Shown here in pieces: positions 974 to 55,552 of a stretch of 64,000 nt of DNA. The DNA is from Corynebacterium ciconiae DSM 44920 (lineage in GTDB: Bacteria > Actinomycetota > Actinomycetes > Mycobacteriales > Mycobacteriaceae), in contig NZ_CP047189.1 of NCBI RefSeq assembly GCF_030440575.1, positions 868,001 through 932,000 on the forward strand. The letters are read 5' to 3'. Position 1 is the first letter of the stretch. The number at the start of each line of letters is the position of its first letter. A model generated the notes under the pieces. It had not been told where the DNA came from and did no database searches. It was given only the letters and a program-made list of their open reading frames with translations. The translations under genes and the position numbers were made by a program.

Positions 974-2752
974 CTATGTGGTAGTCGGCTTGGTTGTGAT
1001 CAGGGCGAATTCCCAAGGGCCGAGGTCGGTGTGGGTATCGCTTACTGTCGGGGAGGTGAAGGAGTAGACGAGTGTGCCGCCGAAGGGCACACGGGTCTTG
1101 TGCGCGGAGTAGTTGCCCACGAAGATGTAGTCGCCGCGGTCCATGGCCACCCACTGCTCGTCGTGGCTGACTTGCATGTGCTCGAGCCACGGATCGGCAA
1201 GTCCGCAGGAACGGCGCAGGCGCAGCAGGGTGCGATAGGCCTCAAGGATGCTTTGTTGGGTGGCATCGAAATCCCAATCCAATCGTGAGCGCAGGAAGGT
1301 CTCTTCTTCCGCGGGGTTCGGTACATCCTCGGGGTCCCATCCAGCGCTGGCGAATTCTCGCAGACGGCCTTCGGCGGTCAGCCGCAGCAGTTCTTGATCC
1401 CCGTGGGATACAAAGAACTGGAAGGGGGTGGTTGCGCCGAACTCTTCCCCTTGGAAGAGCATCGGGGTGTAGGGCGAAAGATAGATAGTGGCGGCTTTCA
1501 ACACCTGTTGGACAGGGCTGAGGTTCTGGCTAGGCCGGTCACCTTGGCATCGGTTGCCCACCTGGTCGTGGGTGGTGGTGTAGGTGACAAAACGGTTTGC
1601 CGGAATCACATCGGTGTGGAGGTGACGGCCATGGCGCTTGCGGCGGAAGGTCGAGTGCCAGCGGGTGTGTACAAAGACTTCCTCAAGAGCATTCGCCAGG
1701 GTGGCTGTGTCACCAAAATCGGTGTAGTAGGTGTGCTGTTCACCGGTGACGAGGGCGTGCAGAGCGTGGTGAATATCATCAATCCACTGCGCATCAAGCC
1801 CGTAGCCGCCGGCCTCCTTCGAAGTCACCAGCCTAGGATCGTTTTGGTCCGACTCTGCGATCATGAACCTTGAAATTCCGGTTTCGGCTTCCACACGGCG
1901 GGCCACTTCGGAGATTTCCTCCAAAATGGGAACTGCGCCGGGATCGTTGAGAGCCTGCACTGCGTCGAGCCGCACCCCGTCGATGTGGTAGTCCCGCAAC
2001 CACTGCTCGATAGCGTCGAGCACATACAGCCGCACCTCGTCGGAGTCTTCGCCGTTGAGATTGACTACCTCACCCCAGCCGGTGGATCCGCCCGAGGTGT
2101 AGGGGCCAAAGGCTCCTACATAATTGCCCTCTGGGCCGAAGTGGTTGTACACGCAGTCGAGCACCACGGCGATACCTCGGCGGTGGGCGGCGTCGACAAG
2201 CCTCTTAAGTCCTTCGGGGCCGCCATAGCCGGCGTGGACCGCGTGCAGCGACACGCCGTCATAGCCCCAGTTACGGTTCCCGCCGAAAGGCTGCACGGGC
2301 ATGAGCTCGATCGCCGTCACCCCGAGATCGACAAGGTGATCGAGTTTTTCAATCACTCCATCGAAGGTGCCCTCGGGGCTAAAGGTGCCCACATGCAGCT
2401 CGTAGAGCACCTGGCCCGGCAAGCTGCGACCAGTCCACGCCTGGTCGCCCCACGGATATTCATGATCCACCACGGCGCTGAGCCCATGCACCCCATCGGG
2501 CTGGGATTGAGAGCGTGGATCGGGAAACGGCCCATGCTTGTCGACGCCACCTGCCGAATCCTCACTGCTTTTTTCAAGCAGAAAACCATAACGATCCCCC
2601 GGGCATGGGCGAACCTCCGCGGTAGTGAAGACATCCGCGCGGTCAGGATCGCGCTCCAAGTCGATGATGCGCTCGCGTGAAGAATCACCACCGGGGTGGA
2701 GAAGAAGAGACACTGCCTCTGCGTAGGGGGCCCATACACTAAAAGTTTTCAT
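974..2752 (-). CDS. treZ: malto-oligosyltrehalose trehalohydrolase (TreZ)
   Basis: This cytoplasmic GH13 enzyme releases trehalose from maltooligosyl-trehalose, the second step of the TreY/TreZ route. The 592-residue product starts MKTFSVWAPYAEAV, the usual N-terminal carbohydrate-binding fold of TreZ, so the ATG at 2752 is preferred over an in-frame upstream start. The catalytic motifs are complete: nucleophile D263 in DGVRLDAVQAL, acid/base E300 in MIAESDQND, and the TTHDQVGN motif that holds the third acid. Residues 68-72 (GGVDK) are encoded by a near-exact copy of the dispersed 16-bp repeat. treY lies about 3 kb away, and a divergent IMPACT-family gene starts 98 bp upstream. Confidence 0.95.
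   Translation of the reverse strand: MKTFSVWAPYAEAVSLLLHPGGDSSRERIIDLERDPDRADVFTTAEVRPCPGDRYGFLLEKSSEDSAGGVDKHGPFPDPRSQSQPDGVHGLSAVVDHEYPWGDQAWTGRSLPGQVLYELHVGTFSPEGTFDGVIEKLDHLVDLGVTAIELMPVQPFGGNRNWGYDGVSLHAVHAGYGGPEGLKRLVDAAHRRGIAVVLDCVYNHFGPEGNYVGAFGPYTSGGSTGWGEVVNLNGEDSDEVRLYVLDAIEQWLRDYHIDGVRLDAVQALNDPGAVPILEEISEVARRVEAETGISRFMIAESDQNDPRLVTSKEAGGYGLDAQWIDDIHHALHALVTGEQHTYYTDFGDTATLANALEEVFVHTRWHSTFRRKRHGRHLHTDVIPANRFVTYTTTHDQVGNRCQGDRPSQNLSPVQQVLKAATIYLSPYTPMLFQGEEFGATTPFQFFVSHGDQELLRLTAEGRLREFASAGWDPEDVPNPAEEETFLRSRLDWDFDATQQSILEAYRTLLRLRRSCGLADPWLEHMQVSHDEQWVAMDRGDYIFVGNYSAHKTRVPFGGTLVYSFTSPTVSDTHTDLGPWEFALITTKPTTT
2186..2201 (+). repeat. dispersed 16-bp repeat, 14/16 match
   Basis: Reads GGCGGCGTCGACAAGC on the plus strand, inside treZ. 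It is a weaker copy and could be chance. Confidence 0.35.
2536..2551 (-). repeat. dispersed 16-bp repeat, 15/16 match
   Basis: Reads GGTGGCGTCGACAAGC on the minus strand. Inside treZ it encodes GGVDK, in a loop before the catalytic domain. Confidence 0.6.
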
Positions 2753-2850
2753 GCTTGTCCACTGTAGCAATCGGATGCTGCGCTCTCGCCGGCTTTTATA
2801 GAGCGCTGCGGGATGCGCTAATGCGGTGTGCGGGCATTGAGAATGACACA

Positions 2851-3519
2851 ATGTCAGCTATGTACCAGCTACCAGCAGAGAGCATCGACGCGCCGGCGGT
2901 GGCGGAATTTGAGGAAAAACGCTCCCGATTTATCGGCCTGATCGCCCGGGCCAGTAGCGAGGACGAAGCCCGCGCGTTCATCGCGCAATGTGTCTCGGCC
3001 TATCCAGATGCCCGCCACCACTGCCACGCCTTCATCCTGCACCAGGAGGGGGCACAACCAATAGAGCGGTCCAGCGATGACGGTGAGCCATCTGGGACCG
3101 CCGGTATGCCGATGCTCGATGTTGTGCGGGGCAGCGGATTGCTCAATGTTGTTGCCGTCGTGGTGCGCTATTTCGGGGGAATCAAACTTGGCACCGGCGG
3201 GTTGGTACGCGCCTATGGGCATGCGGTACAGCTGGCGGTGGAACAGGTCAGCGTGGTCGATCGCGCCAAGCGGCTGCTGCTTCGCCTTGAGTTGGACCAC
3301 GCCAGCGCGGGCAAAATTGAGTCCGAATTGCGCCACCCGCACGGCTTTGAATTAGCAGTATTAGAGCCGGACTACACTGCCCGCGGTGTAGTGCTCACCC
3401 TCGCCGTAGACCCTGCCGATGAAGAACGCGCCACGGCACTAATTTCCCAACTCAGCGGTGGCACCGCGAGCGTTAGCAGAGGCGGGGAGATGTGGGTAGA
3501 CACCCCACGGAAGAGGTAG
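2851..3519 (+). CDS. yigZ: IMPACT/YigZ family protein
   Basis: A 222-residue member of the UPF0029 (IMPACT) family, whose eukaryotic relatives regulate Gcn2; the bacterial role is not settled. The hallmark is at residues 107-123, YFGGIKLGTGGLVRAYG, preceded by DDGEPSGTAGMP at 76-87. The C-terminal part is the DUF1949-like ferredoxin fold. The ATG at 2851 was chosen because MSAMYQLPAES is where family similarity begins; ATG 2860 is also possible. There is no strong ribosome-binding site. It is divergent from treZ with 98 bp between the start codons, and a small membrane-protein gene follows 61 bp downstream. Confidence 0.9.
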   Translation: MSAMYQLPAESIDAPAVAEFEEKRSRFIGLIARASSEDEARAFIAQCVSAYPDARHHCHAFILHQEGAQPIERSSDDGEPSGTAGMPMLDVVRGSGLLNVVAVVVRYFGGIKLGTGGLVRAYGHAVQLAVEQVSVVDRAKRLLLRLELDHASAGKIESELRHPHGFELAVLEPDYTARGVVLTLAVDPADEERATALISQLSGGTASVSRGGEMWVDTPRKR

Positions 3520-3566
3520 CCACCGAAGCACCCTGCCCGTATCCCTCAGGGGGCCAGCCAAGTGGG

Positions 3567-3572
3567 TACTAT
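3567..3572 (+). promoter_or_regulatory. -10 element of a probable leaderless gene
   Basis: TACTAT lies 8 nt before the ATG at 3581, so transcription should begin at or within a base or two of the start codon. No Shine-Dalgarno sequence is present. Confidence 0.5.
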
Positions 3573-5582: not shown

Positions 5583-8006
5583 CTAGATACCTTCCAACAA
5601 CGAGATGGGCAGGGTGGCGAAAAGTTCGGCCACGGCCACGGTGCCCTGCCACTCACGGCCGGTGAAACGATCACGCCACTGTCCCTCGGGCAGGGTGATG
5701 GTGGTTTCGCCCCAGCCGCCTTCGTGCTCCAGCAGGAGCGGCGTGCGGGTGGCGAGAGCAATCACGTCTACATTGCGTTCCCCATCGCCGCGCGCCATAC
5801 CCACCAGATGGTTTTCTGCCGGGCCCTGAGCGAACACAGACTGATAGTCGGCGTCGATGAAGTATTCGGGATGCTCGCGGCGCAGCGTCAGCGACTCGTG
5901 GACCACGGCGAGTTTCACCATATCCGGGGTGGCGTCGATAAGCGCTGCATCCCCTTGGGATACAAGCCCATCGTGGGTCAGAGTGTGCAGATACTGGCCG
6001 CGCTTGGTGTAGTCCACGAAACGGCGGTTGTCTGGATCCACGAGGGAGTCGTCGAAGAACTCATTGCCCTGGTAGATATCTGGGATGCCGGGGCCAATAA
6101 GCTGCAGCAACTTTCGGCCCACGGACAGCACTCGTGCCGAAGGGGCCAGCTGCTGCACATAGCTGGTGATCAGCGGGGACGCGGGGCCGTTGACCAACGC
6201 GTTGATCCAGTTGTGGATGGAATCCTCAAAGTGCGCATCTGGGTCGGTCCACGTGGTGTGCACGCTAGCCTCGCGCATGGCCTTTTCCGCATAGGCATGG
6301 AAGCGTTCCACCAAGGACTCGGACACCTCGCCATCTTCCGGCCAGATGCCCAGTAGGTTTTGCAACAAGAACAGCCCGGTTTGGGAGTCCGGCGCGGGGG
6401 TGAGCGCCAAGACCTCGCGCACCAGCTCTGCGAACTCGGTGGGAGTTTCAGAGATCGACAGAATCCGAGCGCGCACATCCTCGCCGCGTTTAGTGTCATG
6501 GGTGGTCAACGTGGTCATAGCTTTGGGCCAGAGCACGCTGCGTTCCTGCTGCAGCAGATGGAACTCGGCAGCAGAAACACCGAAACGACCCGGGGCGCCA
6601 CCTACCTCCTGCAAAGGAACAAGACGGCAAGCGCGATAGAAGGTGGTATCTTCCACGCCCTTAGCCATCACCGCGCCGCAGACCTGGGCGAAACGAATCT
6701 TGGCCTCGCCATCGGCCAGCAGCCCCGCGGAGATGAGATCGAGGGCGTTACGACGCGAAGGGAAACGCCGCCCCATATCGGCAACAATGGTGGCGGTGAC
6801 ACGCGACAGCGACAAATAATCTGCGCGGTAAACCGGCATGGCGGCCACCAGATCCACGATTGTGTCAAACAGCTCCTCATCGGAGACCCGGCCACCGACG
6901 GTGGAGAAGTTATCGCGCCGCAACGCCCGCGCCAAACGACGCACCTCGGCGGAAAGCTCATCGGCAGCCACATCACGTTTGAGCGTGTGCTCTGTCGCCT
7001 CGATGGCGGCCTCGTTCCACGTCGAGCCGGACTGCTCTAGCGCCAACATAGACAGCGCATCTTCGGCGCGGCGATTAAGAAATACCCCGTCGAGCTCCCG
7101 CAGAGCGTCATAGCCGGTCGTGCCGTCGGCGGCCAGGCGGGCATCGAGTGGCTCGTGCACGTCGAGGATCTTCTCCACCACGAGCCAGCGATCATCGCCA
7201 ATGACATCCCGGAGGCGCTTGAGATAGCCGAAGGGATCAGACAGGCCGTCGGGGTGATCCACCCGGATACCGTCGATAAGCCCCTCGGCGCACAGCTGGC
7301 GAATCACGCGGTGGGTGTGTTCGAACACCAGTGGATCTTCCTGGCGGATGCCGGCGAGTCCATTTACGGAGAAGAATCGGCGGTAGCTGATCACCCCGTC
7401 GCGCCAGTACATCAACTTGTAGTGCTGCTGGCGGTAGGTGGTGAGGGGATCATCGCTGAGAGTGCCTTCATCGATGGGGAAGATGTTGTCGTAGTAGGCG
7501 AGCACGGTCTCGCCATCGACCTCACGGAACTCGAGCTTGTCCTCGTCGCCCTCGGCACCAAGAACCGGCAGGCCCAGCTTGCCTTCCGCGCCATTATCCT
7601 CGTGCCAATCGATATCGAAGTAGGACTCGAATTCAGAGTCCTGGCCCCGCTTGAGTACATCCCACCACCAGGCGTTATCGCGGGGATTATCAATACCCAC
7701 GTGGTTGGGCACGATATCGATCACAAGACCCATGCCGTGCTCGTGGACCACATCAGCTAGTGCACGAAAGCCCTCGATGCCACCGAGCTCAGGGTTGACG
7801 GTAGTCGGGTCGATCACATCGTAGCCGTGGTTCGATTCTGGGGCTGCGGCCAGAATCGGGGAACAGTAGACGTGGCTGACGCCAAGCTTGTGCAGATAGG
7901 GCACGATCTCAGCCGCTTCAGCAAAGCCAAAAGCGCGGCCCTGCGCATCGGCCTTAGGCCCGCGCAGCTGAATGCGATACGTGGAGGTAATAGGGGTACG
8001 GGGCAT
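5583..8006 (-). CDS. treY: maltooligosyl trehalose synthase (TreY)
   Basis: The enzyme isomerises the terminal alpha-1,4 linkage of maltodextrins to the alpha,alpha-1,1 linkage of trehalose; TreZ then releases trehalose. The 807-residue length is typical. GH13 motifs are visible: DIVPNHVG at 97-104, DGIRVDHPDGL with nucleophile D250, and VVEKIL with acid/base E279. The start MPRTPITSTYRIQLRG matches the family N-terminus. relS follows 6 bp downstream. A 272-bp upstream gap probably holds the promoter. One exact copy of the dispersed repeat encodes ALIDATP near the C-terminus. Confidence 0.96.
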   Translation of the reverse strand: MPRTPITSTYRIQLRGPKADAQGRAFGFAEAAEIVPYLHKLGVSHVYCSPILAAAPESNHGYDVIDPTTVNPELGGIEGFRALADVVHEHGMGLVIDIVPNHVGIDNPRDNAWWWDVLKRGQDSEFESYFDIDWHEDNGAEGKLGLPVLGAEGDEDKLEFREVDGETVLAYYDNIFPIDEGTLSDDPLTTYRQQHYKLMYWRDGVISYRRFFSVNGLAGIRQEDPLVFEHTHRVIRQLCAEGLIDGIRVDHPDGLSDPFGYLKRLRDVIGDDRWLVVEKILDVHEPLDARLAADGTTGYDALRELDGVFLNRRAEDALSMLALEQSGSTWNEAAIEATEHTLKRDVAADELSAEVRRLARALRRDNFSTVGGRVSDEELFDTIVDLVAAMPVYRADYLSLSRVTATIVADMGRRFPSRRNALDLISAGLLADGEAKIRFAQVCGAVMAKGVEDTTFYRACRLVPLQEVGGAPGRFGVSAAEFHLLQQERSVLWPKAMTTLTTHDTKRGEDVRARILSISETPTEFAELVREVLALTPAPDSQTGLFLLQNLLGIWPEDGEVSESLVERFHAYAEKAMREASVHTTWTDPDAHFEDSIHNWINALVNGPASPLITSYVQQLAPSARVLSVGRKLLQLIGPGIPDIYQGNEFFDDSLVDPDNRRFVDYTKRGQYLHTLTHDGLVSQGDAALIDATPDMVKLAVVHESLTLRREHPEYFIDADYQSVFAQGPAENHLVGMARGDGERNVDVIALATRTPLLLEHEGGWGETTITLPEGQWRDRFTGREWQGTVAVAELFATLPISLLEGI
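5928..5943 (+). repeat. dispersed 16-bp repeat, exact copy
   Basis: GGTGGCGTCGATAAGC on the plus strand, antisense inside treY, where the complement reads LIDAT. Confidence 0.75.
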
Positions 8007-13112: not shown

Positions 13113-13697
13113 TCATAGACGGTTCTCCGAGTTAATACCCTTAACCAGCAGCTGGGCGCCCAGTTCGAAGCGGGCGCTGTAGTCCACCTCCTGCAGGTGA
13201 GCGCCGGATTCATCCACCGAGCTGGCCAGCTCTGTCAGCGCCCGCGTGGATTGTTCCGCGAGCACGGCGCCAATAACGTAGTGCACGAACACTGCCGCCA
13301 TGTCCGCGCGTTGCTCCGCGGCGACGTCCGCGGGCAAATGGGCGCTAAAGATCGCCCCGGCCTGGGCCGCGAGTTCGGGCTGGGCGAGGGCCGCACTGAC
13401 GATTTCTGCACCATCGCGGTGGGCGTTGAGGCAGGCGCGCAGCCGATCCGCCGCGGTGAGCAGGTGTATTGCGCCGCGCTTATCGACGCCACCCTCGGGC
13501 TCTTGCACGCAGGCCGGCTCGAGGATCTTCTGGGCAATCTCCGCAATCAGTGCCTGCTTGGAGGGGACATGCCAATACAGGGCCCCTGGGGCGACCCCGA
13601 GATGCTTGGCCACGCGCCGCATGGTCATGTCGGCTAACCCGAAGGTGTCCAAGATGGTCATGGCCGAGTCAATAATCGCCTGTTTCGATAGCTGCAC
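13113..13697 (-). CDS. TetR-family transcriptional regulator
   Basis: A 194-residue regulator. The N-terminal helix-turn-helix is clear at about residues 5-50 (SAMTILDTFGLADMTMRRVA, HLGVAPGALYWHVPSKQAL), and the C-terminal domain resembles TetR_C. It lies 9 bp upstream of glgX on the same strand and is therefore likely to control glgX and itself. Residues around 68-72 (GGVDK) are encoded by an exact copy of the dispersed 16-bp repeat, in the linker between the two domains. The start is GTG. A lipoprotein gene is divergent, 203 bp away. The ligand is unknown. Confidence 0.88.
   Translation of the reverse strand: MQLSKQAIIDSAMTILDTFGLADMTMRRVAKHLGVAPGALYWHVPSKQALIAEIAQKILEPACVQEPEGGVDKRGAIHLLTAADRLRACLNAHRDGAEIVSAALAQPELAAQAGAIFSAHLPADVAAEQRADMAAVFVHYVIGAVLAEQSTRALTELASSVDESGAHLQEVDYSARFELGAQLLVKGINSENRL
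13478..13493 (-). repeat. dispersed 16-bp repeat, exact copy
   Basis: Minus-strand orientation inside the TetR gene, encoding GGVDK. It forms an inverted pair with the copy at 13729. Confidence 0.75.
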
Positions 13698-13728: not shown

Positions 13729-13744
13729 GGTGGCGTCGATAAGC
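13729..13744 (+). repeat. dispersed 16-bp repeat, exact intergenic copy
   Basis: Plus orientation, 32 bp upstream of the TetR start codon. The palindrome CCTTAAGG and a T6 run follow it. Confidence 0.75.
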
Positions 13745-14578: not shown

Positions 14579-15133
14579 GTGGACATGGCAGTATCTGAGG
14601 CCGCCGAAGCTCCCAGTCGGCGGCGTCTGCATGTAGGGGCCACGGCCCGCACCGCGATGGCTGTGTTCGCCCTCGCGGTTGGAGCGAATGTGGCGTGGGC
14701 TGTGCCGTGGGGGCTCCTGCGGCCCGCGCAGCGCGTGAGCATCGGCCCAGATGGGCAGGCATGGAGCGATGCCGCCGCACTTGCTGTGCAATTTCCGCAG
14801 TATGCACTGTGGGTGATTGTTAGCTCTATCGTGGCGTTTGTCGTGAGCATAGGTGCTTATCGACGCAGCCTCGCCGCCCGTAACCTGTGGACCATGGCAG
14901 CCGTGGTATTCAGCGCAAGCATCGGAGCCTTGATGGCCTTCGACCTCGGCAACTGGCTATCAACTGTGGCCCATCCCATGCCGGCCCCGCAGGACATCGA
15001 GCCAGGAGGCAGCGTGGAGATCGCCCTCGTGCTGAGCGGGCGGGTCGGAGTGCTCGCGGCCGCGGGCATCGCCGCATTGTCGTATTGGGTAAGCGCTTGG
15101 GTCACTGAAAGCGAGTCTGGCGAAGACTCCTAA
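14579..15133 (+). CDS. conserved membrane protein, four predicted segments
   Basis: A 184-residue integral membrane protein with hydrophobic segments near residues 24-45, 73-93, 103-122 and 153-173, and a short acidic C-terminus (TESESGEDS). The GTG start directly abuts the lipoprotein stop; an ATG two codons in (14585) is the alternative. It probably forms a two-gene unit with the lipoprotein, and the histidine operon follows after 174 bp. I recognise it only as an actinobacterial membrane protein of unknown role. Confidence 0.75.
   Translation: MDMAVSEAAEAPSRRRLHVGATARTAMAVFALAVGANVAWAVPWGLLRPAQRVSIGPDGQAWSDAAALAVQFPQYALWVIVSSIVAFVVSIGAYRRSLAARNLWTMAAVVFSASIGALMAFDLGNWLSTVAHPMPAPQDIEPGGSVEIALVLSGRVGVLAAAGIAALSYWVSAWVTESESGEDS
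14855..14870 (-). repeat. dispersed 16-bp repeat, 14/16 match
   Basis: Contains the intact 12-base core GCTTATCGACGC, encoding AYRRS in the membrane-protein frame. Confidence 0.35.
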
Positions 15134-20161: not shown

Positions 20162-20177
20162 GGTGGCGTCGATAAGC
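20162..20177 (+). repeat. dispersed 16-bp repeat, exact intergenic copy
   Basis: Lies in the 94-bp spacer inside the his operon, 24 bp before the hisH start codon. Confidence 0.75.
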
Positions 20178-22720: not shown

Positions 22721-23566
22721 GTGGGCGTAGCAGTGCGTGTGATTCCGTGTTTGGATGTGGATCAAGGACGCGTGGTAAAAGGCGTGAACTTCCAGGGACT
22801 GCGCGATGCCGGTGACCCGGTTGAGCTCGCGGCCCGGTATGACGCGGAGGGCGCCGACGAACTCACTTTCCTCGACGTCTCTGCCTCTACTGCGGGGCGT
22901 GGCACCATGCTCGATGTGGTGCGCCGCACCGCCGATCAGGTGTTTATCCCGCTGACGGTCGGCGGGGGAGTGCGCAGCGTTGAGGACGTGGACCAGCTGC
23001 TGCGCGCCGGTGCGGACAAGGTGAGTGTAAACACCGCCGCGATTGCGCGTCCCGAGTTACTCACCGAACTTGCCGAAACTTTCGGCTCCCAGTGCGTAGT
23101 GCTCAGCCTCGACGCGCGTCGAGTCCCGGAGGGAGGAACCCCGCAGCCCAGCGGTTTCGAGGTCACTACCCACGGTGGGACCCGCTCTGCGGGGATTGAT
23201 GCCATCGAGTGGGCTAAAGAGGCCGAACGTCGCGGCGTGGGCGAGATCCTGCTCAATTCCATGGACGGCGACGGCACCAAAGCTGGCTTCGACACCGAAT
23301 TAATTGCTCTGGTTCGCGCGGAAGTATCGGTCCCCGTGATCGCCTCGGGTGGTGCCGGCAGCGCCGAGCATTTCCCGCCTGCCGTACAGGCTGGGGCGGA
23401 TGCGGTGCTCGCCGCCAGCATTTTCCACTTCCGCGAAGTCAGCATTGCCTCCTGCAAGCAGGCGCTTATCGACGCCAACCTCGAGGTGCGCACCAGCCGT
23501 GACCACGCCAGCGCCCCGGCGGAGCTGCCAAGCACAGCTGAAGGGGGAAGCGATGCCGAGCACTAG
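22721..23566 (+). CDS. hisF: imidazole glycerol phosphate synthase, cyclase subunit (HisF)
   Basis: Together with HisH, converts PRFAR and ammonia to imidazole glycerol phosphate and AICAR. The barrel motifs [14 protein letters not shown] (catalytic Asp), [32 protein letters not shown] (second catalytic Asp) and VIASGGAGS are present. At 281 residues it is about 20 longer than usual because of an Ala/Ser/Glu-rich tail that overlaps the start of hisI by 14 bp. The GTG start has AAGGAC 8-9 nt upstream. A 15/16 copy of the dispersed repeat encodes LIDAN. Confidence 0.96.
23464..23479 (-). repeat. dispersed 16-bp repeat, 15/16 match
   Basis: Minus orientation, inside hisF, encoding ALIDAN. Confidence 0.6.
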
Positions 23567-33595: not shown

Positions 33596-35245
33596 TTAGT
33601 GCACCTCCTTGGTGTCAGCGGCCTTGTGTAGGTCCGCCTCGGGGCCGTTGTCGTCAATACCGCGGAAGCCGAGTGAGTGATCGACCGCCACGCCAAAATC
33701 TGAGCCGGGAGGGCCATCGAGGGTTTGGTTGCCGCGCCACGGCAGGATTGTCAGGGCCATGCAGCCGACGAAGATGATGCCGATCACGCCCCAACCGTAG
33801 ATACCCAGCTGAGAAGCGGAGTAGCCCTCATAGGGCTCGGCGATAAGGTTGGTGATTTCCTGGAAAAGGATGATGGCTAGCACCACAGGGGTGATGTTGG
33901 CGACGAAGATACGCCAGGTATTGCCCACACGGAAGGAGGAGACGGCGTTGAGGTGCAGCGCCAGCTCATCGGTGCGGTGCAAGATCCAGTCCACCACGAT
34001 AATCGCGGCGATAGCCACGGCGACGATGCCGATGTTATTGGTGAACTTATCCACGATGTCCAAGGTGACCAGGCCAGAGGTGGTGGGGAAGAAGACCATG
34101 GCGATTAAGGCCATGGAGCCGCCCACTACCAGCACAGCCTGCACACGCGGCAGGTCGAACTTGTCCTGGAAAGCGCCGATAACTACCTCGAGCAGGGACT
34201 GCAGGGAGGTGATGCCGGCGATCACGAGGCAGGCGAAGAACACCACGCCGAAGATTGAGCCCCACAGTCCACCCATTTCGGAAATTACGGTGGGGAAGGC
34301 CACGAAGGCCAGGCCGGGACCAGAGGAGGTGACCTCATCCACGCCCACTCCGGCCTGGGTAGCCATGAAGCCGAGGGTGGCGAACACGCCGATGCCGGCA
34401 AGCACCTCGAAGGAGGAGTTGGCGAACGCGGCCACCAGCCCAGTGCCGGTGAGGTTCGAGCGCGGCTTGAGATAAGAGGAGTAGGTGAGCATGATGCCGA
34501 AGGCCACCGAGAGCGAGAAGAAGATCTGGCCATAGGCGGCGATCCACACCGTTGGGTTGCTCAGCGCCGACCAATCCGGTGTGAAGAAAGCATTGAGGCC
34601 GGTGGCCGCGCCGGGCAGGGTGAGCGAGTAGACCACCATGCCGATGAAGAGCACAGCCAACACCGGAATGGCCCAGGTGGACAGGCGGCCAATGCCCTTA
34701 TCCACACCGAGTGCCAGCACTGCGAGGACTAGCACCCACACCACGGCGAGCACGATGGCGATCGGCCACACGAAGTCGAGGCTGTTGATCGAGGTGGCGT
34801 CGATACGCAGGAAGTCGTTGAAGAAGTACTCCTCGGCGTTATCGCCCCAGGACTTGCCGATGGAGCTAAAAGCGTAGATGGCTGCCCACGCGATGATCAC
34901 CGAGTAGTAGATGGTGATGAAGAAGGACACGCCCACTTGGAACCAGCCCACCGGCTCGGTCCAGGACTTCAGGCGGCGAAACGCCTTCGGGGCGGAGCCG
35001 CGGAAGCGGTGTCCCACGGCGAAGTCGAAGAACAGCAGCGGAATACCTGCGGTGATGAGCGCGACAATATAGGGGATCAGGAAGGCGCCGCCGCCGGATT
35101 GGTAGGCGACATAAGGGAAACGCCAGATGTTTCCCAGGCCCACAGCGGAGCCAATGGCGGCGAAGAGGAAGGCCTGCCGCGAAGAGAATGTCTCGCGACC
35201 CTGCGTGGCCTCTGCGCTACCTGCGGTGCTCGTGGAGGTAGACAT
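33596..35245 (-). CDS. metP: MetP, sodium-dependent methionine/alanine transporter (NSS family)
   Basis: A 549-residue neurotransmitter:sodium symporter family protein with about 12 membrane segments. The family sodium/substrate site is in GSAVGLGNIWRFPYVAY near residue 32. The partner MetS gene follows directly, which separates it from other bacterial NSS members. Upstream, two overlapping palindromes sit just after a likely -10 sequence. A 15/16 copy of the dispersed repeat (LRIDATS) lies in an extracellular loop. Confidence 0.92.
   Translation of the reverse strand: MSTSTSTAGSAEATQGRETFSSRQAFLFAAIGSAVGLGNIWRFPYVAYQSGGGAFLIPYIVALITAGIPLLFFDFAVGHRFRGSAPKAFRRLKSWTEPVGWFQVGVSFFITIYYSVIIAWAAIYAFSSIGKSWGDNAEEYFFNDFLRIDATSINSLDFVWPIAIVLAVVWVLVLAVLALGVDKGIGRLSTWAIPVLAVLFIGMVVYSLTLPGAATGLNAFFTPDWSALSNPTVWIAAYGQIFFSLSVAFGIMLTYSSYLKPRSNLTGTGLVAAFANSSFEVLAGIGVFATLGFMATQAGVGVDEVTSSGPGLAFVAFPTVISEMGGLWGSIFGVVFFACLVIAGITSLQSLLEVVIGAFQDKFDLPRVQAVLVVGGSMALIAMVFFPTTSGLVTLDIVDKFTNNIGIVAVAIAAIIVVDWILHRTDELALHLNAVSSFRVGNTWRIFVANITPVVLAIILFQEITNLIAEPYEGYSASQLGIYGWGVIGIIFVGCMALTILPWRGNQTLDGPPGSDFGVAVDHSLGFRGIDDNGPEADLHKAADTKEVH
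34793..34808 (+). repeat. dispersed 16-bp repeat, 15/16 match (GATACGC variant)
   Basis: Antisense inside metP, encoding RIDAT on the coding strand. Confidence 0.55.
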
Positions 35246-48579: not shown

Positions 48580-49034
48580 GGGGCTTCAGTGTCCTTTCTT
48601 GGAAGCTGTAGATGCGACGGGGCACAAAGCTCTAGTCCACAGACTTCACTTAAACCACATTAGTCACAACAGCCACAACGTTAATACATTTCTCAGCTTC
48701 AGGCTAGACCCTTAAGCCGCCGGGTACGTGCTGTCTCTGCCGAGTACGTCCGTGGTGGGGCGAGGTGGCGTCAATAAGCAAAAGCGGGGCTGGTAGAGGT
48801 CGGTGTCCTTATATTCTTAAGAGGGAGTGCATAGAAGTTGCGGCAGCGTTGGAGTAGAGAGGTTTTTGTTGCCATTTCGTTACAATCTACTCTAGAAGAT
48901 GGGGTATCGCCTGAAAAGGGGGTACACTCAGCTAGTCGTTGCCCGTGTGTTGCACGCAGGCAACGGGCGCGTCCTTCTTCACTATCGTCTGCGCCCGCGA
49001 TCATTTTCTATATTTCAGGAGTACACACAAGCCC
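48580..49034 (+). promoter_or_regulatory. typA upstream region
   Basis: A 455-bp gap with no convincing gene. It holds one copy of the dispersed repeat and candidate -10 elements TACAAT (48881-48886) and TACACT (48923-48928). An inverted repeat GAGTAGA/TCTACTC (48852-48858 with 48886-48892) overlaps the first. A leader stem CGTTGCC/GGCAACG (48937-48943 with 48959-48965) follows. The typA ribosome-binding site is GGAG, 13 nt before GTG. Confidence 0.45.
48764..48779 (+). repeat. dispersed 16-bp repeat, 15/16 match, intergenic
   Basis: Reads GGTGGCGTCAATAAGC, about 100 bp upstream of the first typA promoter candidate. Confidence 0.6.
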
Positions 49035-50963
49035 GTGAGCGAAAACACCACTACCGCGCGCACCGAATTCCGAAACGTCGCCATTGTCGCACACGTTGAC
49101 CACGGCAAGACCACCCTCGTCAACGCGATGCTGGAGCAATCCGGTGCCTTCGGTGACCACGGCGAGATCGCCGATCGTGTGATGGACTCCGGTGATCTGG
49201 AGAAGGAAAAAGGCATCACCATTCTGGCCAAGAACACCTCCATTCGTCGCGCCGGCCAGGGCAAGAACGGCGAAGACCTCATTATTAACGTGATCGACAC
49301 CCCCGGCCACGCCGACTTCGGTGGCGAGGTGGAGCGCGCGCTGTCCATGGTGGACGGCGTGGTGCTGCTTATCGACGCTTCCGAGGGCCCACTGCCGCAG
49401 ACTCGCTTCGTGCTGGGCAAGGCATTGGCTGCGAAGATGCCGGTGATCATCTGCGTGAACAAGACCGACCGCCCCGATGCCCGCATCGACGAGGTTGTCG
49501 AAGAGGCGCAAGACCTGCTGCTGGAGCTCGCCTCCACACTCGAGGATGAGGAGGCCCAAGAGGCCGCCGAGACCCTGCTGGACCTGCCCGTGCTCTATGC
49601 CTCGGGCCGTGCGGGCACCGCCTCCACCGAGAACCCGGGCGATGGCAATGCGCCTGCTGCCAAAGACCTGCAGGAGCTCTTCGATGTGCTCTACGATGTG
49701 CTGCCCGAGCCCTCGGCTGATATCAATGCCCCCTTGCAGGCGCATGTGACCAACTTGGACTCCTCCTCCTTCTTGGGCCGTATCGGTCTGGTGCGCGTGC
49801 ACGCCGGCGTGCTGAAGAAGGGCCAGCAGGTGGCTTGGATTCACTACGACGACGAGGGCAATCAGCACACCAAGACCGTCAAGATCGCCGAGCTGCTGGC
49901 CACCGAGGGGATGCAGCGCGTTCCCGCTAAGGAAGTGATCGCCGGTGATATCGCTGCGATCTCCGGTATCGATCAGGTGATGATCGGCGACACCCTCGCT
50001 GATATCGACAACCCCGAGCCGCTGCCGCGCATCACCGTGGACGAGCCGGCGATCTCGATGACCATTGGTGTCAACACCTCGCCGATGGCCGGCCGCGGCG
50101 GTGGCGATAAGCTCACCGCCCGTGTGGTTAAGGCCCGCCTCGAGCAGGAGCTGATCGGTAACGTCTCCCTGCGCGTGCTGCCCACCGAGCGGCCGGACGC
50201 GTGGGAGGTGCAGGGCCGCGGCGAGATGGCGCTGTCCGTGCTGGTGGAAACCATGCGCCGCGAGGGCTTCGAGCTCACCGTGGGTAAGCCCCAGGTGGTG
50301 CCCAAGACCATTGACGGAAAGATCCACGAGCCCTACGAGCACATGGTGATCGACGTGCCCGCCGAGTTCCAGGGAGCTGTGACGCAGCTGCTGGCTAACC
50401 GCAAGGGCATCATGATGTCCATGGACACCACCGGCACCGATTGGGTGCGGATGGAGTTCGATGTACCCGCCCGTGGCCTCATCGGTTTCCGCACCGTGTT
50501 CATGACGGACACCAAGGGCACCGGTATTGCTAACCACTACTCCGATGGCTACCGCCCGTGGGCCGGCGAGATCAAGGATCGCGCCTCCGGCTCGTTGGTG
50601 GCCGATCGCTCCGGCCAGGTCACCGCCTATGCCCTGATGCAGCTGGCCGATCGCGGCCAGTTCTTCGTGGAGCCCGGCATGGAGGCCTATGAAGGCATGG
50701 TGGTAGGCCAGAACAACCGTGATGAAGATATGGATGTCAACATCACCAAGGAGAAGAAGCTCACCAACATGCGCTCGGCCACTGCCGATGCCACCGTCAC
50801 CTTGGCCAAGGCGCATGTGTTGTCTTTGGATGAGGCGATGGAGTTCTGTGGCCAGGACGAGTGCGTGGAGGTCACCCCAGAGCGCATCCGCGTGCGCAAG
50901 GTGATCCTCTCTGCCACCGACCGTGGCCGCGCCCGCGCCCGGGAGAAGGCCCGCAACAAGTAG
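49035..50963 (+). CDS. typA: ribosome-associated GTPase TypA/BipA
   Basis: A translational GTPase that binds the 70S ribosome and aids 50S assembly and stress adaptation. The 642-residue protein has G1 AHVDHGKTTL, the switch region DSGDLEKEKGITI, G3 DTPGHADF and G4 NKTDRP, and the C-terminal TypA-specific domain. The GTG at 49035 (SENTTTARTEFRNVAIVAHV) fits the family; an in-frame upstream ATG would add residues unlike TypA. It heads the typA-lpqW-mshB order also known in mycobacteria. Confidence 0.95.
   Translation: MSENTTTARTEFRNVAIVAHVDHGKTTLVNAMLEQSGAFGDHGEIADRVMDSGDLEKEKGITILAKNTSIRRAGQGKNGEDLIINVIDTPGHADFGGEVERALSMVDGVVLLIDASEGPLPQTRFVLGKALAAKMPVIICVNKTDRPDARIDEVVEEAQDLLLELASTLEDEEAQEAAETLLDLPVLYASGRAGTASTENPGDGNAPAAKDLQELFDVLYDVLPEPSADINAPLQAHVTNLDSSSFLGRIGLVRVHAGVLKKGQQVAWIHYDDEGNQHTKTVKIAELLATEGMQRVPAKEVIAGDIAAISGIDQVMIGDTLADIDNPEPLPRITVDEPAISMTIGVNTSPMAGRGGGDKLTARVVKARLEQELIGNVSLRVLPTERPDAWEVQGRGEMALSVLVETMRREGFELTVGKPQVVPKTIDGKIHEPYEHMVIDVPAEFQGAVTQLLANRKGIMMSMDTTGTDWVRMEFDVPARGLIGFRTVFMTDTKGTGIANHYSDGYRPWAGEIKDRASGSLVADRSGQVTAYALMQLADRGQFFVEPGMEAYEGMVVGQNNRDEDMDVNITKEKKLTNMRSATADATVTLAKAHVLSLDEAMEFCGQDECVEVTPERIRVRKVILSATDRGRARAREKARNK
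49367..49382 (-). repeat. dispersed 16-bp repeat, 14/16 match
   Basis: The 12-base core GCTTATCGACGC is intact, encoding LLIDAS just before typA's SEGP motif. Confidence 0.35.
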
Positions 50964-51016: not shown

Positions 51017-52642
51017 GTGGCTCGCCGTGGTGTGCTGAGTTGCGCCAGCGCGGCTATCGCGCTGTGCGTGGCTAGCTGTGTCGCCAACCCGGGGCCGCCG
51101 CCGGTGGAGGATGTGGAGCGGGCTACCACCGCTAGCGAGACCTCCACGCAGCCCGATGCGCCGGAGGAGAACGATCCGGCGGAGCGTAATCAGATCACCG
51201 TGGGCATGGACCCCTTGCTTAATGGCTTCAATCCGCACCTCATCGCTGATGCCACTCCCTTTGTGGAATCGATGGCGGCCCTTGTGCTGCCCAGTGCCTT
51301 TGTGGACGGCGAGATCAATTCCTCGCTGCTGACCAAGGCCGAGGAGATCGAGCCCGAAGGTGATGCGGTGCAAACGGTGCGCTACCAGATCAGCACTGCA
51401 GCGCAGTGGTCTGATGGCACTCCTATTACGGGGTCGGATTTCCAATACCTGTGGGAATCCATCGTGAGCACGCCGGGCACGAATGCCACCGCCGGCTACG
51501 AGCAGATATCGGGCATCCGCATCTCCAATGGCGGCAAAACCGTGGCGGTGGACTTCTCCCACCGTTTGGAGCAATGGCAAGAGCTCTTTACGCACTTGCT
51601 GCCCAGCCACATCTTCCTCACCGGAACCGATGGTTTCGATCGGGTGTTGGCCAACACCATGCCGGTCTCCGGCGGGCGCTATCAAGTCTCATCCATTGAC
51701 CGGCAGCGCGGCGAGGTGGTGCTTTCGCGCAATGACCGCTACTGGGGCACCCAGCCTGCCACGATCGAAAGACTCGTTTTCCGCGAGATTCGATCCGCCG
51801 GCAGTGCCGCTGAGATGATGCGGCGCAGTCAGATGGACTTAGCTGACCTCTCGCTTGAGGAGACGACCGAACCGGCACTCGATCTCGTGCCTGGGGTAGA
51901 CACCGCCACGCGGGTGTATCCGCGCCGCCTCGATGTGGTGTTCAACACCGCGGCTCCTGCGCTGGATACTCCGGCGAAGCGGGCTGGATTCATTGGGCTT
52001 ATCGACGCCAAGCTCGTGGCCAGCCTCGCAACCGGCCGCAGCACCCACCTCGGCTTGGCGGACCCGAGCGAATTTCCCCAGCCAGAGGTAGAGCCAGAGG
52101 CGCTGCCGGAGAACACCGAAGTGACTTTAGGGGTGGATGCCGCCGATGATGAGGCGGTAACCGCCGCCCGGTCCATCAGTGATCTGGCCGCCCAGCGAGG
52201 AATCGTGGTGAATGTGGTTCTCACAACTACCACCGAGCTTTTTAGCACCCTCATGCCGCAGGGGCGCATCGATGGCATCGTCTCTCGCTCCCGCACTGAA
52301 AACGCCCCCATCGAGGTGGCTACCCGCTACATGTGCCAGGTGGCGGTCTCACAGCTGTGCGACGAAGAGCTCGATTCCACCCTGCGCGGCTATCTTGGCG
52401 GTTCGGTGGATTCCGCCACCGCCCAGCAGGCGGTGCAGGCGGTAGAAAACCGTGAGATCATCACCTACCCGATTTCTTATACCATTCGCCTCGACGCGGC
52501 GGGCTCGCGGATCACCGGCCCGGCCGCCGAGTTCGCGGACTGGCCGATCGATCCCTATGCCGGGCGTCTCGCCAGTGCTGCCAGCTGGAGTGTGCGCGAT
52601 GGCTTGGGTCCCAGTCGTATCAGCACCATCGAAGGAGACTAA
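51017..52642 (+). CDS. lpqW: LpqW-like lipoprotein (SBP family 5 fold)
   Basis: A 541-residue lipoprotein: the signal peptide ends in VASC, then comes an acidic Pro/Ser/Thr linker and a domain of the peptide-binding-protein fold (AAQWSDGTPITGSDFQYLWE is recognisable). Placement between typA and mshB matches mycobacterial LpqW, which influences PIM/lipoglycan branching rather than peptide uptake; no transporter genes are adjacent. The GTG at 51017 has AAAGAGG 8 nt upstream; the GTG at 51008 overlaps that site and is rejected. Confidence 0.85.
   Translation: MARRGVLSCASAAIALCVASCVANPGPPPVEDVERATTASETSTQPDAPEENDPAERNQITVGMDPLLNGFNPHLIADATPFVESMAALVLPSAFVDGEINSSLLTKAEEIEPEGDAVQTVRYQISTAAQWSDGTPITGSDFQYLWESIVSTPGTNATAGYEQISGIRISNGGKTVAVDFSHRLEQWQELFTHLLPSHIFLTGTDGFDRVLANTMPVSGGRYQVSSIDRQRGEVVLSRNDRYWGTQPATIERLVFREIRSAGSAAEMMRRSQMDLADLSLEETTEPALDLVPGVDTATRVYPRRLDVVFNTAAPALDTPAKRAGFIGLIDAKLVASLATGRSTHLGLADPSEFPQPEVEPEALPENTEVTLGVDAADDEAVTAARSISDLAAQRGIVVNVVLTTTTELFSTLMPQGRIDGIVSRSRTENAPIEVATRYMCQVAVSQLCDEELDSTLRGYLGGSVDSATAQQAVQAVENREIITYPISYTIRLDAAGSRITGPAAEFADWPIDPYAGRLASAASWSVRDGLGPSRISTIEGD
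51997..52012 (-). repeat. dispersed 16-bp repeat, 14/16 match
   Basis: The core GCTTATCGACGCCA is intact and encodes LIDAK inside lpqW. Confidence 0.4.
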
Positions 52643-52651: not shown

Positions 52652-53596
52652 ATGAGCACCACAGTGCATGCGATAAGCCCCCTCGACGGGGTCACCGTCA
52701 TGGCCGTTCACGCCCATCCCGATGATGAGGCGATCTGGACCGGCGGGCTGCTTGCTCATCTCGCTCGCCGAGGAGCGAATGTCATCGTGGTCACCTGCAC
52801 CTTAGGTGAGCAAGGCGAGGTGATCGGCGAGCCTTATCAGAACCTAGTGGCCGATCACGCCGACCAGCTCGGCGGTTTCAGAATCCGCGAGCTCAGCGCG
52901 TCCCTCGCAGCCCTCGGCGTGCGGGGAGTCCACCTCGGTGCGGTGGGGCAGTGGCGCGACTCCGGCATGGCTGGGGATCCTTCGGCGGATCACCCTCGTG
53001 CTTTTGTGAACAATCTTGATCAGGCCACCGAGCAGCTGCGGGCGCTCATTGACGAGCACCGCCCCGATCTACTCGTTACCTATGGTCCAGACGGCGGCTA
53101 TGGCCACCCAGATCACATCGCCGCCCACACCATCACCCATCGCGCCGCCCCCGCCGACACCCGCATTCTGTGGGCTGTGACCCTCGAGGAAGACCTTGAG
53201 GCCGGTTTCGCCGGAATCCACAGCATCCCCGATACGTGGCGCCGCGCCGACGCCGAGATCGCCCGGGTGGCGACCGCGGATCTTCGACTGACACTCAGCC
53301 AAGAGGAGCTGGCGTGCAAGGTAGCGGCGATGAAGGCGCACGCCACTCAGCTATGGATCGCCGATGGGCACACCAGCGCCACCAATCCCATTGCCGCCTA
53401 CGCCCAGGCAGAAACGCCAGTGTTCGCCCTGTCTAATCTCATTGCTCAGCCGATCACTGCCTCCGAGGCCTACCAGATTGGTGCCGGCCCGCAGCTGCCC
53501 GCGGGCGCGAAAGATCTGCTCGATGGGCTTGGATGTGCCGAGGAGGGTGGCGTGGTGGCGTCGATAAGCGCACAGCATGAGCGGGAAAAGGAGTAA
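52652..53596 (+). CDS. mshB: GlcNAc-Ins deacetylase (MshB), mycothiol synthesis
   Basis: A zinc-dependent deacetylase that removes the acetyl group from GlcNAc-inositol, a step in making mycothiol, the actinobacterial thiol. The 314 residues show AHPDDE at 21-26 (zinc ligands His and Asp) and GPDGGYGHPDHIAAH, which carries the third ligand. The start lies 9 bp after lpqW. An exact copy of the dispersed repeat encodes VASISA nine codons before the end of the protein, beyond conserved sequence. Confidence 0.93.
   Translation: MSTTVHAISPLDGVTVMAVHAHPDDEAIWTGGLLAHLARRGANVIVVTCTLGEQGEVIGEPYQNLVADHADQLGGFRIRELSASLAALGVRGVHLGAVGQWRDSGMAGDPSADHPRAFVNNLDQATEQLRALIDEHRPDLLVTYGPDGGYGHPDHIAAHTITHRAAPADTRILWAVTLEEDLEAGFAGIHSIPDTWRRADAEIARVATADLRLTLSQEELACKVAAMKAHATQLWIADGHTSATNPIAAYAQAETPVFALSNLIAQPITASEAYQIGAGPQLPAGAKDLLDGLGCAEEGGVVASISAQHEREKE
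53554..53569 (+). repeat. dispersed 16-bp repeat, exact copy
   Basis: In the last codons of mshB, read in the frame VASIS. Confidence 0.75.
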
Positions 53597-53599
53597 GGG

Positions 53600-54043: not shown

Positions 54044-54072
54044 TTCTCACACATTTTCAGGAGTTAGCTCAC

Positions 54073-54390: not shown

Positions 54391-54412
54391 GCCCACGAGG
54401 GAGGCAATCGCA

Positions 54413-55552
54413 GTGACCGCGCGTTCTCGTCAGCCCCTGGCCGCCCGACTTCCCGCCTTCCCGTGGGATAGCCTCGGCCCGATCATCGAGCGCGCCCACG
54501 CTCACCCCGATGGCGCTATCGACCTCACCGTCGGCTCGCCGGTCGATCCCGTAGCCGAGCCGATCGCAGCCTCCCTCAGCGCGCACGCCAACCATCCGGG
54601 CTATCCGCCGACTCTGGGCACGCCCGCGCTTATCGACGCCATCTCGCAGTCCTTGCACCGCCGCTACGGCATTAGCGCGCTGCCTCACAACGCGATTGTG
54701 CCGGTGGTGGGGACCAAAGAACTCATCGCGCAGCTACCGTGGCTGCTCGGGCTAGGCCCCGATCACCGCATCGCCGTGCCAGCCATTGCTTATCCCACCT
54801 ATGACATCGCCGCTAGGCTATGCGGGGCTCGGGCGGTAGTGGCCGAGGAAGTGGAGGAGATCATCGCCTCGGATGCGGATCTCGTCTACATCAACTCCCC
54901 GTCTAATCCCACGGGTCGTGTGCGCAGCGCTGCCGAGCTGTGCGAGATTGTGGCATGGGCCCGCGAGACAGGGGCGATCATTGCCTCCGATGAGTGCTAT
55001 CTCGGCCTAGACTTCTCCGGGCGCGCGCGCTCGATCGCCCACCCCGAGGTATGCGGGGGATCGCTGGACAATCTCATAGCCATCCACTCGCTGTCCAAAA
55101 CCTCCAACATGGCCTCTTACCGCGCCGGCTTCATCTTCGGCGAGCAGAGCGCCATGTCTGAGGTGGCCGAGGTACGCAAACACTGCGGCCTCTCGCTGCC
55201 TTGGGCCGTGCAGCACGCTATGGTGACAGCGCTGAATAGCGACGAGCACGAGCAGGCGCAACACAAGGTGTATCGCCGCCGCCGGGAGCTACTACGCAGC
55301 AGCCTTGAGGCGGCGGGACTGCAGGTGGATTACTCCGAAGCGGGGCTGTATCTGTGGGTCACCCAAGACCGCAGCGCCGAAGAGACGATTGCAGCCTTCG
55401 CTGATCTTGGGATCATCACCGCTCCTGGCACCTTTTATGGCGACAATGAGCAGTGCCGTAGCCATGTTCGGCTCTCCATTACCGCCAGCGACAATGCGAT
55501 CGAGGAGGCCGCCCGGCGTCTCGCCGGAGGGGTGGGCTGCGCGCCCAGCTGA
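54413..55552 (+). CDS. dapC: succinyldiaminopimelate aminotransferase (DapC)
   Basis: A PLP enzyme of the succinylase branch of lysine/diaminopimelate synthesis. The 379 residues include SPSNPTGRVRSA, IIASDECYLGLDF and the Schiff-base lysine in HSLSKTSNMASYRAGF. Its place after fdxC matches dapC in corynebacteria and mycobacteria. The GTG at 54413 has GGGAGG 8 nt upstream. A 15/16 copy of the dispersed repeat encodes ALIDAI. Confidence 0.93.
   Translation: MTARSRQPLAARLPAFPWDSLGPIIERAHAHPDGAIDLTVGSPVDPVAEPIAASLSAHANHPGYPPTLGTPALIDAISQSLHRRYGISALPHNAIVPVVGTKELIAQLPWLLGLGPDHRIAVPAIAYPTYDIAARLCGARAVVAEEVEEIIASDADLVYINSPSNPTGRVRSAAELCEIVAWARETGAIIASDECYLGLDFSGRARSIAHPEVCGGSLDNLIAIHSLSKTSNMASYRAGFIFGEQSAMSEVAEVRKHCGLSLPWAVQHAMVTALNSDEHEQAQHKVYRRRRELLRSSLEAAGLQVDYSEAGLYLWVTQDRSAEETIAAFADLGIITAPGTFYGDNEQCRSHVRLSITASDNAIEEAARRLAGGVGCAPS
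54628..54643 (-). repeat. dispersed 16-bp repeat, 15/16 match
   Basis: Minus orientation inside dapC, encoding ALIDAI. Confidence 0.6.

What the first reader, a model, noticed from the sequence alone, without database searches (positions are those of the whole stretch)
2186..54643. Dispersed 16-bp sequence GGTGGCGTCGATAAGC, 15 copies in 64 kb
Five exact copies (5928, 13478, 13729, 20162, 53554), six with one mismatch (2536, 23464, 30923, 34793, 48764, 54628) and four with two (2186, 14855, 49367, 51997) were read directly. A random 16-mer is expected about 3e-5 times exactly in both strands of this length at equal base use. Copies fall between genes and inside genes in at least three frames (GGVDK, LIDA, VASIS, AYRRS), so selection is on DNA rather than protein. 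Both orientations occur (8 plus, 7 minus), which argues against a strand-polar KOPS-type signal. A DNA-uptake-type sequence, recombination hotspot or nucleoid-protein site would fit; I know of no described element with this sequence.
Basis: seen in the sequence. Interest (0 to 1): 0.85.

Follow-up and report, generated by a model that had tools for sequence, protein, structure and literature searches.

The report
Corynebacterium genome-wide uptake-sequence-like DNA word
A short DNA word is repeated hundreds of times on the chromosomes of many Corynebacterium species but is nearly missing from the plasmids sampled, comes in species-specific dialects, and most resembles the self-recognition tags that some Gram-negative bacteria use when they take up DNA.

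Summary
The genome (2.58 Mb) has 222 copies with at most one mismatch and none of the reversed control. The wider form GGCRTCGRNAAGC occurs 408 times here (control 5) and at least 100 times in 166 of 242 genomes of the genus; outside the genus the highest count in 229 genomes is 55. It exceeds a codon-preserving shuffle (49 against 1.3). Two species at 93% identity keep it far better than nearby DNA. Plasmid-like contigs nearly lack it (1 seen, 48.4 expected). It has no replication-strand bias and comes in discrete dialects (GGCGTCG or GGCATCG; a different word with 644 copies in one species). Best explanation: a DNA-uptake-sequence system, the counterpart of Neisseria DUS and Haemophilus USS, read by ComEA/ComEC and a Tad pilus, whose genes this genome has. 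Uptake is not shown, the receptor is unknown, and species without the word also have com/tad genes.

The parts
2186..2201 (+). copy, 2 mismatches (GGCGGCGTCGACAAGC), inside a predicted gene
   Evidence: gene 974-2713 predicted
2536..2551 (-). copy, 1 mismatch, inside a predicted gene
5928..5943 (+). exact copy, inside a predicted gene
   Evidence: gene 5583-8006
13478..13493 (-). exact copy, inside a predicted gene
   Evidence: gene 13113-13697
13729..13744 (+). exact copy, intergenic; in opposite orientation to the copy at 13478, 251 bp away (start to start)
14855..14870 (-). copy, 2 mismatches, inside a predicted gene
20162..20177 (+). exact copy, intergenic
23464..23479 (-). copy, 1 mismatch, inside a predicted gene
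30923..30938 (+). copy, 1 mismatch (ATACGC), inside a predicted gene
34793..34808 (+). copy, 1 mismatch (ATACGC), inside a predicted gene
48764..48779 (+). copy, 1 mismatch, intergenic
49367..49382 (-). copy, 2 mismatches, inside a predicted gene
51997..52012 (-). copy, 2 mismatches, inside a predicted gene
53554..53569 (+). exact copy, inside the 3' end of a predicted gene (52700-53596)
54628..54643 (-). copy, 1 mismatch, inside a predicted gene

Best explanation
The 16-mer is the local dialect of a Corynebacterium DNA uptake sequence. SHOWN: a 13-16 bp asymmetric word (5'-G-rich flank, then GGTGGCGTCGATAAGC), in hundreds of copies, in both orientations, on the chromosome but scarce on the plasmid-like contigs sampled, conserved at homologous sites, with discrete dialects within the genus. 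INFERRED: a surface DNA receptor, probably on the Tad (Flp) pilus or ComEA, binds duplex DNA carrying the word, and ComEC imports it. Relatives' DNA is therefore favoured in transformation, and each import event that replaces a chromosomal stretch tends to bring in words that match the receptor. Repeated over time, this bias enriches and maintains the words wherever coding allows, and a change in receptor specificity slowly rewrites the genome into a new dialect.
For: Over-representation: 222 copies at <=1 mismatch, control 0; 408 of GGCRTCGRNAAGC, control 5; an unbiased k-mer ranking puts GCGTCGATAAGC first at k=12 (43 against 0.18 expected in 400 kb). Not codon use: 49 against 1.29. Coding constraint shapes it: 16 of 40 GGCGTCGATAAGC copies are non-genic, but 0 of 25 copies with another base at the T. 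Not a mobile repeat: flanks of 60 exact copies are unrelated apart from G-richness on the 5' side and a weak preference in the two bases after the word (94 copies). Conserved: G015/G016 homologous sites differ at 3 of 286 and 2 of 273 positions against 7.7% at shifted positions; 0 of 2000 draws as low, sites used to pick regions excluded. Chromosome-biased: 1 copy in 373,869 bases of 20 secondary contigs, 48.4 expected; the four contigs that I looked up are named Corynebacterium plasmids. Dialects: of 166 genomes with >=100 copies, 17 have GGCATCG in 90.7% or more of copies and 149 in 18.2% or less, none between; one species has 644 copies of CGCGRCGTCAT, control 6, the 36 other genomes searched at most 26. 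In G001 (A dialect) against G105 (G dialect), 3 of 5 alignable G001 sites differ only at the dialect base. Machinery: ComEA, ComEC and a Tad locus in this genome; ComEC over cut-off in 241 of 242 genomes. Of 68 genomes, over cut-off: ComEA-type 65, TadE-like 67, TadA-type ATPase 67. Tad genes are required for transformation in the actinobacterium Micrococcus luteus (PMC4322843, abstract and passages).
Against: No uptake or transformation was measured, and the paper searches showed, by titles and abstract starts of the papers listed, no report of transformation in Corynebacterium. Com/tad genes do not predict the word: of the 34 motif-poor genomes checked, ComEA-type matches are over cut-off in 32, TadE-like in 33 and TadA-type in 34. 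No single com/tad protein stands out between an A-dialect and a G-dialect sister group: 10-23% disjoint columns in all eight. Inverted pairs, common in Neisseria and Haemophilus, are not enriched here: 4 pairs under 300 bp among 200 listed copies against 4.6 expected, though one is a perfect abutting palindrome at 1996734/1996750. In the reverse direction of the G001/G105 comparison only 3 of 7 sites keep the word. Minority A copies of 7% or more are not special to the group that I read as a recent switch: 21 of 149 G-dialect genomes have them. Chromosomal bias and conservation also fit a chromosome-maintenance site.
Confidence: 0.7

Rival explanations
1. Chromosome-architecture or segregation site: a nucleoid or segregation protein of Corynebacterium binds the word across the chromosome.
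For: Scarcity on plasmid-like contigs and strong conservation of sites would also follow from this.
Against: No strand bias and no clustering at the presumed ori or ter in the range where the lists are complete. Protein binding sites are usually palindromic or degenerate (general knowledge), while intergenic copies here hold a long asymmetric word. Discrete dialects, also between sister groups, are harder to explain.
Confidence: 0.14
2. Chi-like recombination signal for an AdnAB or RecBCD-type helicase-nuclease.
For: The 5' part GGTGG resembles the 3' part of E. coli Chi (recalled). The 5' flank is G-rich. Chi signals differ between genera (recalled).
Against: Known Chi sites are about 5-8 bases (recalled); this is 13-16. 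Chi in E. coli is biased toward one replication strand (recalled); here 87 against 94. In the hits listed (a capped list, mostly the first 17 genomes) the third base of GGTGG is the one that varies most. Presence of AdnAB or RecBCD was not searched.
Confidence: 0.09
3. By-product of codon use or of a mutational bias, or remnants of a mobile repeat.
For: 20 of 24 genic copies share one reading frame that spells common residues.
Against: Synonymous shuffles give 1.3 against 49 observed; 16 of 40 core copies are non-genic; reversed controls are 0-8 per strand in 242 genomes; secondary contigs of the same cells nearly lack it; flanks are unrelated.
Confidence: 0.02
4. DnaA-type or transcription-factor site (the reverse complement holds TTATCGAC, near the DnaA box as recalled).
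For: Resemblance only.
Against: Dialects change the TTATC part (CTTGTCGATGCC, CTTGCCGATGCC in G001). Copies are spread over the chromosome and lie both in genes and between them.
Confidence: 0.03

Closest known systems
DNA uptake sequence (DUS) of Neisseriaceae, read by minor pilin ComP (PMC3630211, passages; PMC3868556, search listing with start of abstract)
   Same: Short asymmetric word in hundreds of chromosomal copies in both orientations, in genes and between genes; discrete dialects; placement limited by coding.
   Different: Unrelated sequence; longer word; different phylum and envelope; Tad rather than the type IV pilus of Neisseria; inverted pairs not enriched here; receptor unknown; no uptake shown.
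Uptake signal sequence (USS) of Pasteurellaceae (PMC7811141 and PMC12616744, search listing with starts of abstracts)
   Same: Genome-wide word with an extended, compositionally biased flank (A/T-rich there as recalled, G-rich here).
   Different: Different sequence and phylum; uptake experimentally shown for USS, not here.
Tad/Flp-pilus-dependent transformation of Micrococcus luteus (PMC4322843, abstract and passages)
   Same: Actinobacterial ComEA/ComEC with the tadA-B-C-flp-tadE/F-tadG gene order; matching genes are present in this genome in that order.
   Different: The paper's main text does not hold the terms 'uptake sequence' or 'Corynebacteri'. M. luteus needs two tad clusters; only one TadA match over cut-off was found here.
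Chi and KOPS (recalled)
   Same: Over-represented chromosomal words.
   Different: Those are about 5-8 bases and strand-polar (recalled); this is 13-16 bases and strand-neutral.

Membership tests
DNA uptake sequence (DUS/USS type) | Short word strongly over-represented in the genome beyond composition and codon use | tested here: met
DNA uptake sequence (DUS/USS type) | Both orientations, no replication polarity | tested here: met
   87 against 94 up to 2.07 Mb (lists capped at 100 rows per call); over the 242 genomes 27,325 forward and 27,424 reverse copies
DNA uptake sequence (DUS/USS type) | Dialects discrete between species and following phylogeny | tested here: met
   for discreteness; (32 genomes, com/tad proteins only) for phylogeny, so partial. 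One genome per species, so constancy within a species was not tested
DNA uptake sequence (DUS/USS type) | Carried by core chromosome, scarce in mobile elements | tested here: met
   1 against 48.4 expected on 20 secondary contigs of 14 genomes (at most 20 kb of each); 4 of the 20 confirmed as named plasmids; chromosomal islands, prophages and phages not tested
DNA uptake sequence (DUS/USS type) | Frequent inverted pairs acting as terminators (typical of DUS and USS, but not what defines an uptake sequence) | tested here: not met
   4 pairs under 300 bp among 200 listed copies, 4.6 expected at random; one perfect abutting palindrome
DNA uptake sequence (DUS/USS type) | Host encodes a competence machinery | tested here: met
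   but motif-poor genomes encode it too
DNA uptake sequence (DUS/USS type) | DNA with the word is preferentially bound, taken up and transformed | not testable with these tools
   needs an experiment
DNA uptake sequence (DUS/USS type) | Cognate surface receptor (ComP in Neisseria) | tested here: inconclusive
   eight com/tad proteins compared between dialect sister groups (5 and 6 genomes), none stands out; ComP itself was not searched
KOPS / Chi | Strand polarity relative to replication | tested here: not met
Dispersed mobile repeat (REP, MITE, IS ends) | Conserved unit extending beyond the word, or palindromic ends | tested here: not met
   60 exact copies; 94 copies

The most novel reading that the evidence does not exclude
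Corynebacterium is a genus of naturally competent bacteria that mark their own chromosomes with uptake sequences: the first such system outside Gram-negative bacteria known to me, read by a Tad pilus across a mycolic-acid outer membrane. At least three words (GGCGTCG-type, GGCATCG-type that differs by one base, and the quite different CGCGRCGTCAT) would then set sexual barriers between species, and the G105 group, nested among A-dialect species, would have rewritten its genome from one dialect to another.
Probability: 0.6. Interest if true: 0.95.

Novelty: new variant of a known kind. Interest (0 to 1): 0.88.

Why it matters
Uptake sequences are known to me only from Neisseriaceae and Pasteurellaceae. 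An independent system in a Gram-positive phylum would show that genome-wide self-marking evolves repeatedly, perhaps where an outer membrane must be crossed (Corynebacterium has a mycomembrane; recalled, inference). It predicts that many Corynebacterium species can be transformed by adding a 16-base tag to donor DNA, which would matter for genetics of this industrially and medically important genus. With 242 species and at least three words it also offers a large comparative set for finding how receptor and genome change together.

Tried and rejected
Co-occurrence with ComEC, ComEA, the TadE-like protein and the TadA-type ATPase to explain presence or absence of the word: all are near-universal, so no discrimination. 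In G029, G206 and G128 the best ComEA-type match is below cut-off; in G128 it lies in a 789-aa frame and may be another protein. TadA (PF00437) scores looked bimodal: 33 of 34 motif-rich genomes at 168 bits or more (G094 has only a weak match), motif-poor ones mostly 134-164 bits with G131, G012, G112, G029, G207 and G165 higher. But six of the ten motif-poor genomes in the tree form one deep clade, so this is likely ancestry. G012, counted there as motif-poor, turned out to have its own word. Receptor hunt by disjoint residues between A- and G-dialect sister groups: no outlier among eight proteins (5 A genomes, G101 left out, and 6 G genomes); for more distant genomes the Flp rows of that alignment are partly wrong fragments and were not used. 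De novo word search in G065, G029 and G011 (100 kb each) gave nothing clear; G131 and G241 gave weak candidates only. Comparison of homologous sites G001/G105 remained small: 5 and 7 alignable sites. Paper search by the core 10-mers gave 42 papers; the 20 listed look by title like primers or unrelated work, one of them a C. glutamicum engineering paper that I did not open. The listings stop at 100 rows, so an apparent 138 kb gap near the end of the contig is an artefact.
Full report
OBSERVATION. The window is bases 868001-932000 of a single 2,584,365-base contig. In that genome there are 222 copies with at most one mismatch (106 forward, 116 reverse) and none of the word read backwards. 77 are exact (38 forward, 39 reverse). 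An unbiased ranking of k-mers in 400 kb sampled from 20 places puts GCGTCGATAAGC first at k=12 (43 found, 0.18 expected from a Markov model).

THE GENUS. The 16-mer with one mismatch was counted in 242 genomes of the genus: 224 have at least one match and the counts run from 0 to 249. A wider form, GGCRTCGRNAAGC, gives 408 in the window's genome (control 5) and up to 895. 166 of 242 genomes have at least 100, 27 have 21-99 and 49 have 20 or fewer (tally). In a sample of 251 genomes of the family, 229 of them in 30 other genera, no other genus shows the expansion; the largest count outside is 55. The genus is Corynebacterium: secondary contigs of G013, G030, G103 and G121 are identical over the 20 kb queried to named plasmids of C. 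atrinae, C. comes, C. marinum and C. occultum.

NOT CODON USE, NOT A MOBILE REPEAT. In 464 kb (window plus 20 stretches, 393 genes by a simple codon-based finder of mine, 81% coding) GGCGTCGANAAGC occurs 49 times inside genes. 200 shuffles of synonymous codons within each gene give 1.29 +- 1.09, largest 6. 16 of 40 copies of GGCGTCGATAAGC are non-genic, but 0 of 25 copies with A, C or G in place of the T. So where no protein is encoded the core is held to its full form, and genic copies bend to the code. 20 of 24 genic copies use one frame, reading Leu-Ile-Asp-Ala on the other strand. Flanks of the exact copies are unrelated except for a G-rich 5' side of about 20 bases and a weak purine-pyrimidine preference after the word (60 copies, 94 copies chosen largely for being exact, 51 of them intergenic). 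Samples of G001 and G015 also show G-rich upstream sides, G005 weakly, G012 not; in genes part of this is codon periodicity.

CONSERVATION. Two related species, G015 and G016, were compared over ten paired stretches (168 kb aligned, 93.5% identical). Leaving out copies that had guided the choice of regions, homologous word positions differ at 3 of 286 in one direction and 2 of 273 in the other. The same sites slid by multiples of three bases differ at 7.7%, and none of 2000 random slides was as low. In one search, 10-mers made by shuffling the word show 6.8%.

SCARCE ON PLASMIDS. Twenty secondary contigs from 14 motif-rich genomes (373,869 bases, at most 20 kb of each) hold one copy where whole-genome density predicts 48.4 (genome sizes rounded). 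Four of the twenty were looked up and are named plasmids; the other 16 were not looked up.

NO REPLICATION POLARITY. GC skew of the samples changes sign between 1.30 and 1.42 Mb. Up to 2.07 Mb, where both lists are complete (each call lists 100 places), 57 forward and 65 reverse copies lie on the first arm (to 1.29 Mb) and 29 and 30 on the second: 87 with replication and 94 against, taking the start of the contig as the origin. The largest gap in the complete range is 75 kb, as expected at random (mean largest gap 76 kb). Over all 242 genomes the wider word occurs 27,325 times forward and 27,424 times reverse.

DIALECTS. In 100 kb samples of low-count genomes, other words surfaced without being asked for: GGCATCG[AG]CAAGC in G001, CGTCG[GT]CAAGC in G005, CGCG[AG]CGTCAT in G012, weak forms in G131 and G241, nothing clear in G011, G029 and G065. 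Counting GGCATCGRNAAGC over 242 genomes shows two discrete states. Of the 166 genomes with at least 100 copies of the wider word, 17 carry A in 90.7% or more (G001 407 of 424, G096 497 of 506, G106 308 of 309) and 149 in 18.2% or less, median 2.3%; the window's genome has 4 of 408. CGCGRCGTCAT has 644 copies in G012 (control 6) and at most 26 in the 36 other genomes searched. In a tree of Tad and ComEC proteins from 32 genomes, rooted on G012, the G-dialect group around G105 is sister to the A-dialect group around G001 and lies among further A-dialect genomes, which suggests a switch back from A to G. The six members of that group in the tree keep about 7-13% A copies, but so do other G-dialect genomes that I did not place in a tree (21 of 149 have 7% or more), so the leftover alone does not prove a recent switch. 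In the shared Tad and ComEC regions, 3 of 5 alignable G001 copies have a G105 counterpart that differs only at the dialect base, while surrounding DNA differs at 23%; in the other direction it is 3 of 7. This is suggestive but small.

MACHINERY. The window's genome has comEA (SLBB plus HHH domains), comEC and what I take for holA in a row, and a Tad locus with an Ssd/CpaE-like gene, tadA, tadB, tadC, a DUF4244 pilin, and TadE- and Rv3654c-type minor pilins (holA by gene order as recalled; the TadE match, 37.4 bits, is just under its cut-off of 40). One copy of the word ends about 24 bases before the predicted comEA start. ComEC is over cut-off in 241 of 242 genomes. Of 68 genomes (34 motif-rich, 34 motif-poor), ComEA-type matches are over cut-off in 65, TadE-like in 67 and TadA-type in 67. 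In Micrococcus luteus, an actinobacterium, tad genes are required for transformation, and the authors note the tad plus ComEA/ComEC combination across Actinobacteria (PMC4322843, abstract and passages). This is a plausible machine, but motif-poor genomes have it too, so its presence is necessary at most. Comparing eight com/tad proteins between the two dialect sister groups singles out none.

INTERPRETATION. The combination of a long asymmetric word, both orientations, coding-limited perfection, conservation, plasmid scarcity and discrete dialects is, as far as I know, found together only in uptake sequences. PMC3630211 (passages) describes eight DUS dialects in Neisseriaceae that follow the core-genome tree, placement in permissive regions, frequent inverted pairs (not seen here), and a stray minority dialect in some genomes. 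I hold the uptake explanation most likely (0.7) and chromosome-maintenance or Chi-like roles as the serious rivals. Uptake, receptor and competence in Corynebacterium remain unshown. Searches of the paper library (open-licence papers only, and capped lists in 17, 28, 46 and 74) listed nothing on an uptake sequence in Corynebacterium. PMC5217627, which screened spaced motifs in prokaryotic genomes, reports for three Corynebacterium species only CRISPR repeats in the passages I saw.

Noticed in passing
L077-L081 (G005 stretches): A CRISPR-like array (unit containing GGAACATCCCCGCTCACGCGGGG, about 13 copies) dominates the k-mer list of this genome.
   Followed up: no
L156, L157, L159, L160, L161 (Tad loci of five motif-poor genomes): A gene of about 453 aa sits between the Tad minor pilin genes and the DECH helicase in 5 of 10 motif-poor Tad loci and in 0 of 10 motif-rich ones.
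   Followed up: no
L097:10371-10386 (genome 660371-660386): A one-mismatch copy of the word in minus orientation ends about 24 bases before the predicted comEA start.
   Followed up: no
genome positions 1996734-1996765: Two exact copies abut in opposite orientation and form a perfect 32-base palindrome, as uptake-sequence terminators do.
   Followed up: partly
genus g23 of the family (for example G320, G333, G356): 51-55 copies of GGCRTCGRNAAGC against a reversed control of 6-7: a modest excess that may hide a related word in another genus.
   Followed up: no
window, whole: 7-mers GTCATAG (16 against 2.75 expected) and ACCCCGA (32 against 8.85) are also over-represented and unexplained.
   Followed up: no
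L087-L091 (G131) and L167-L171 (G241): Weak candidate dialects GGCGTCGGACA (CGTCGGACA 9 against 0.91) and GGCGTCGGATA (5 against 0.06).
   Followed up: partly
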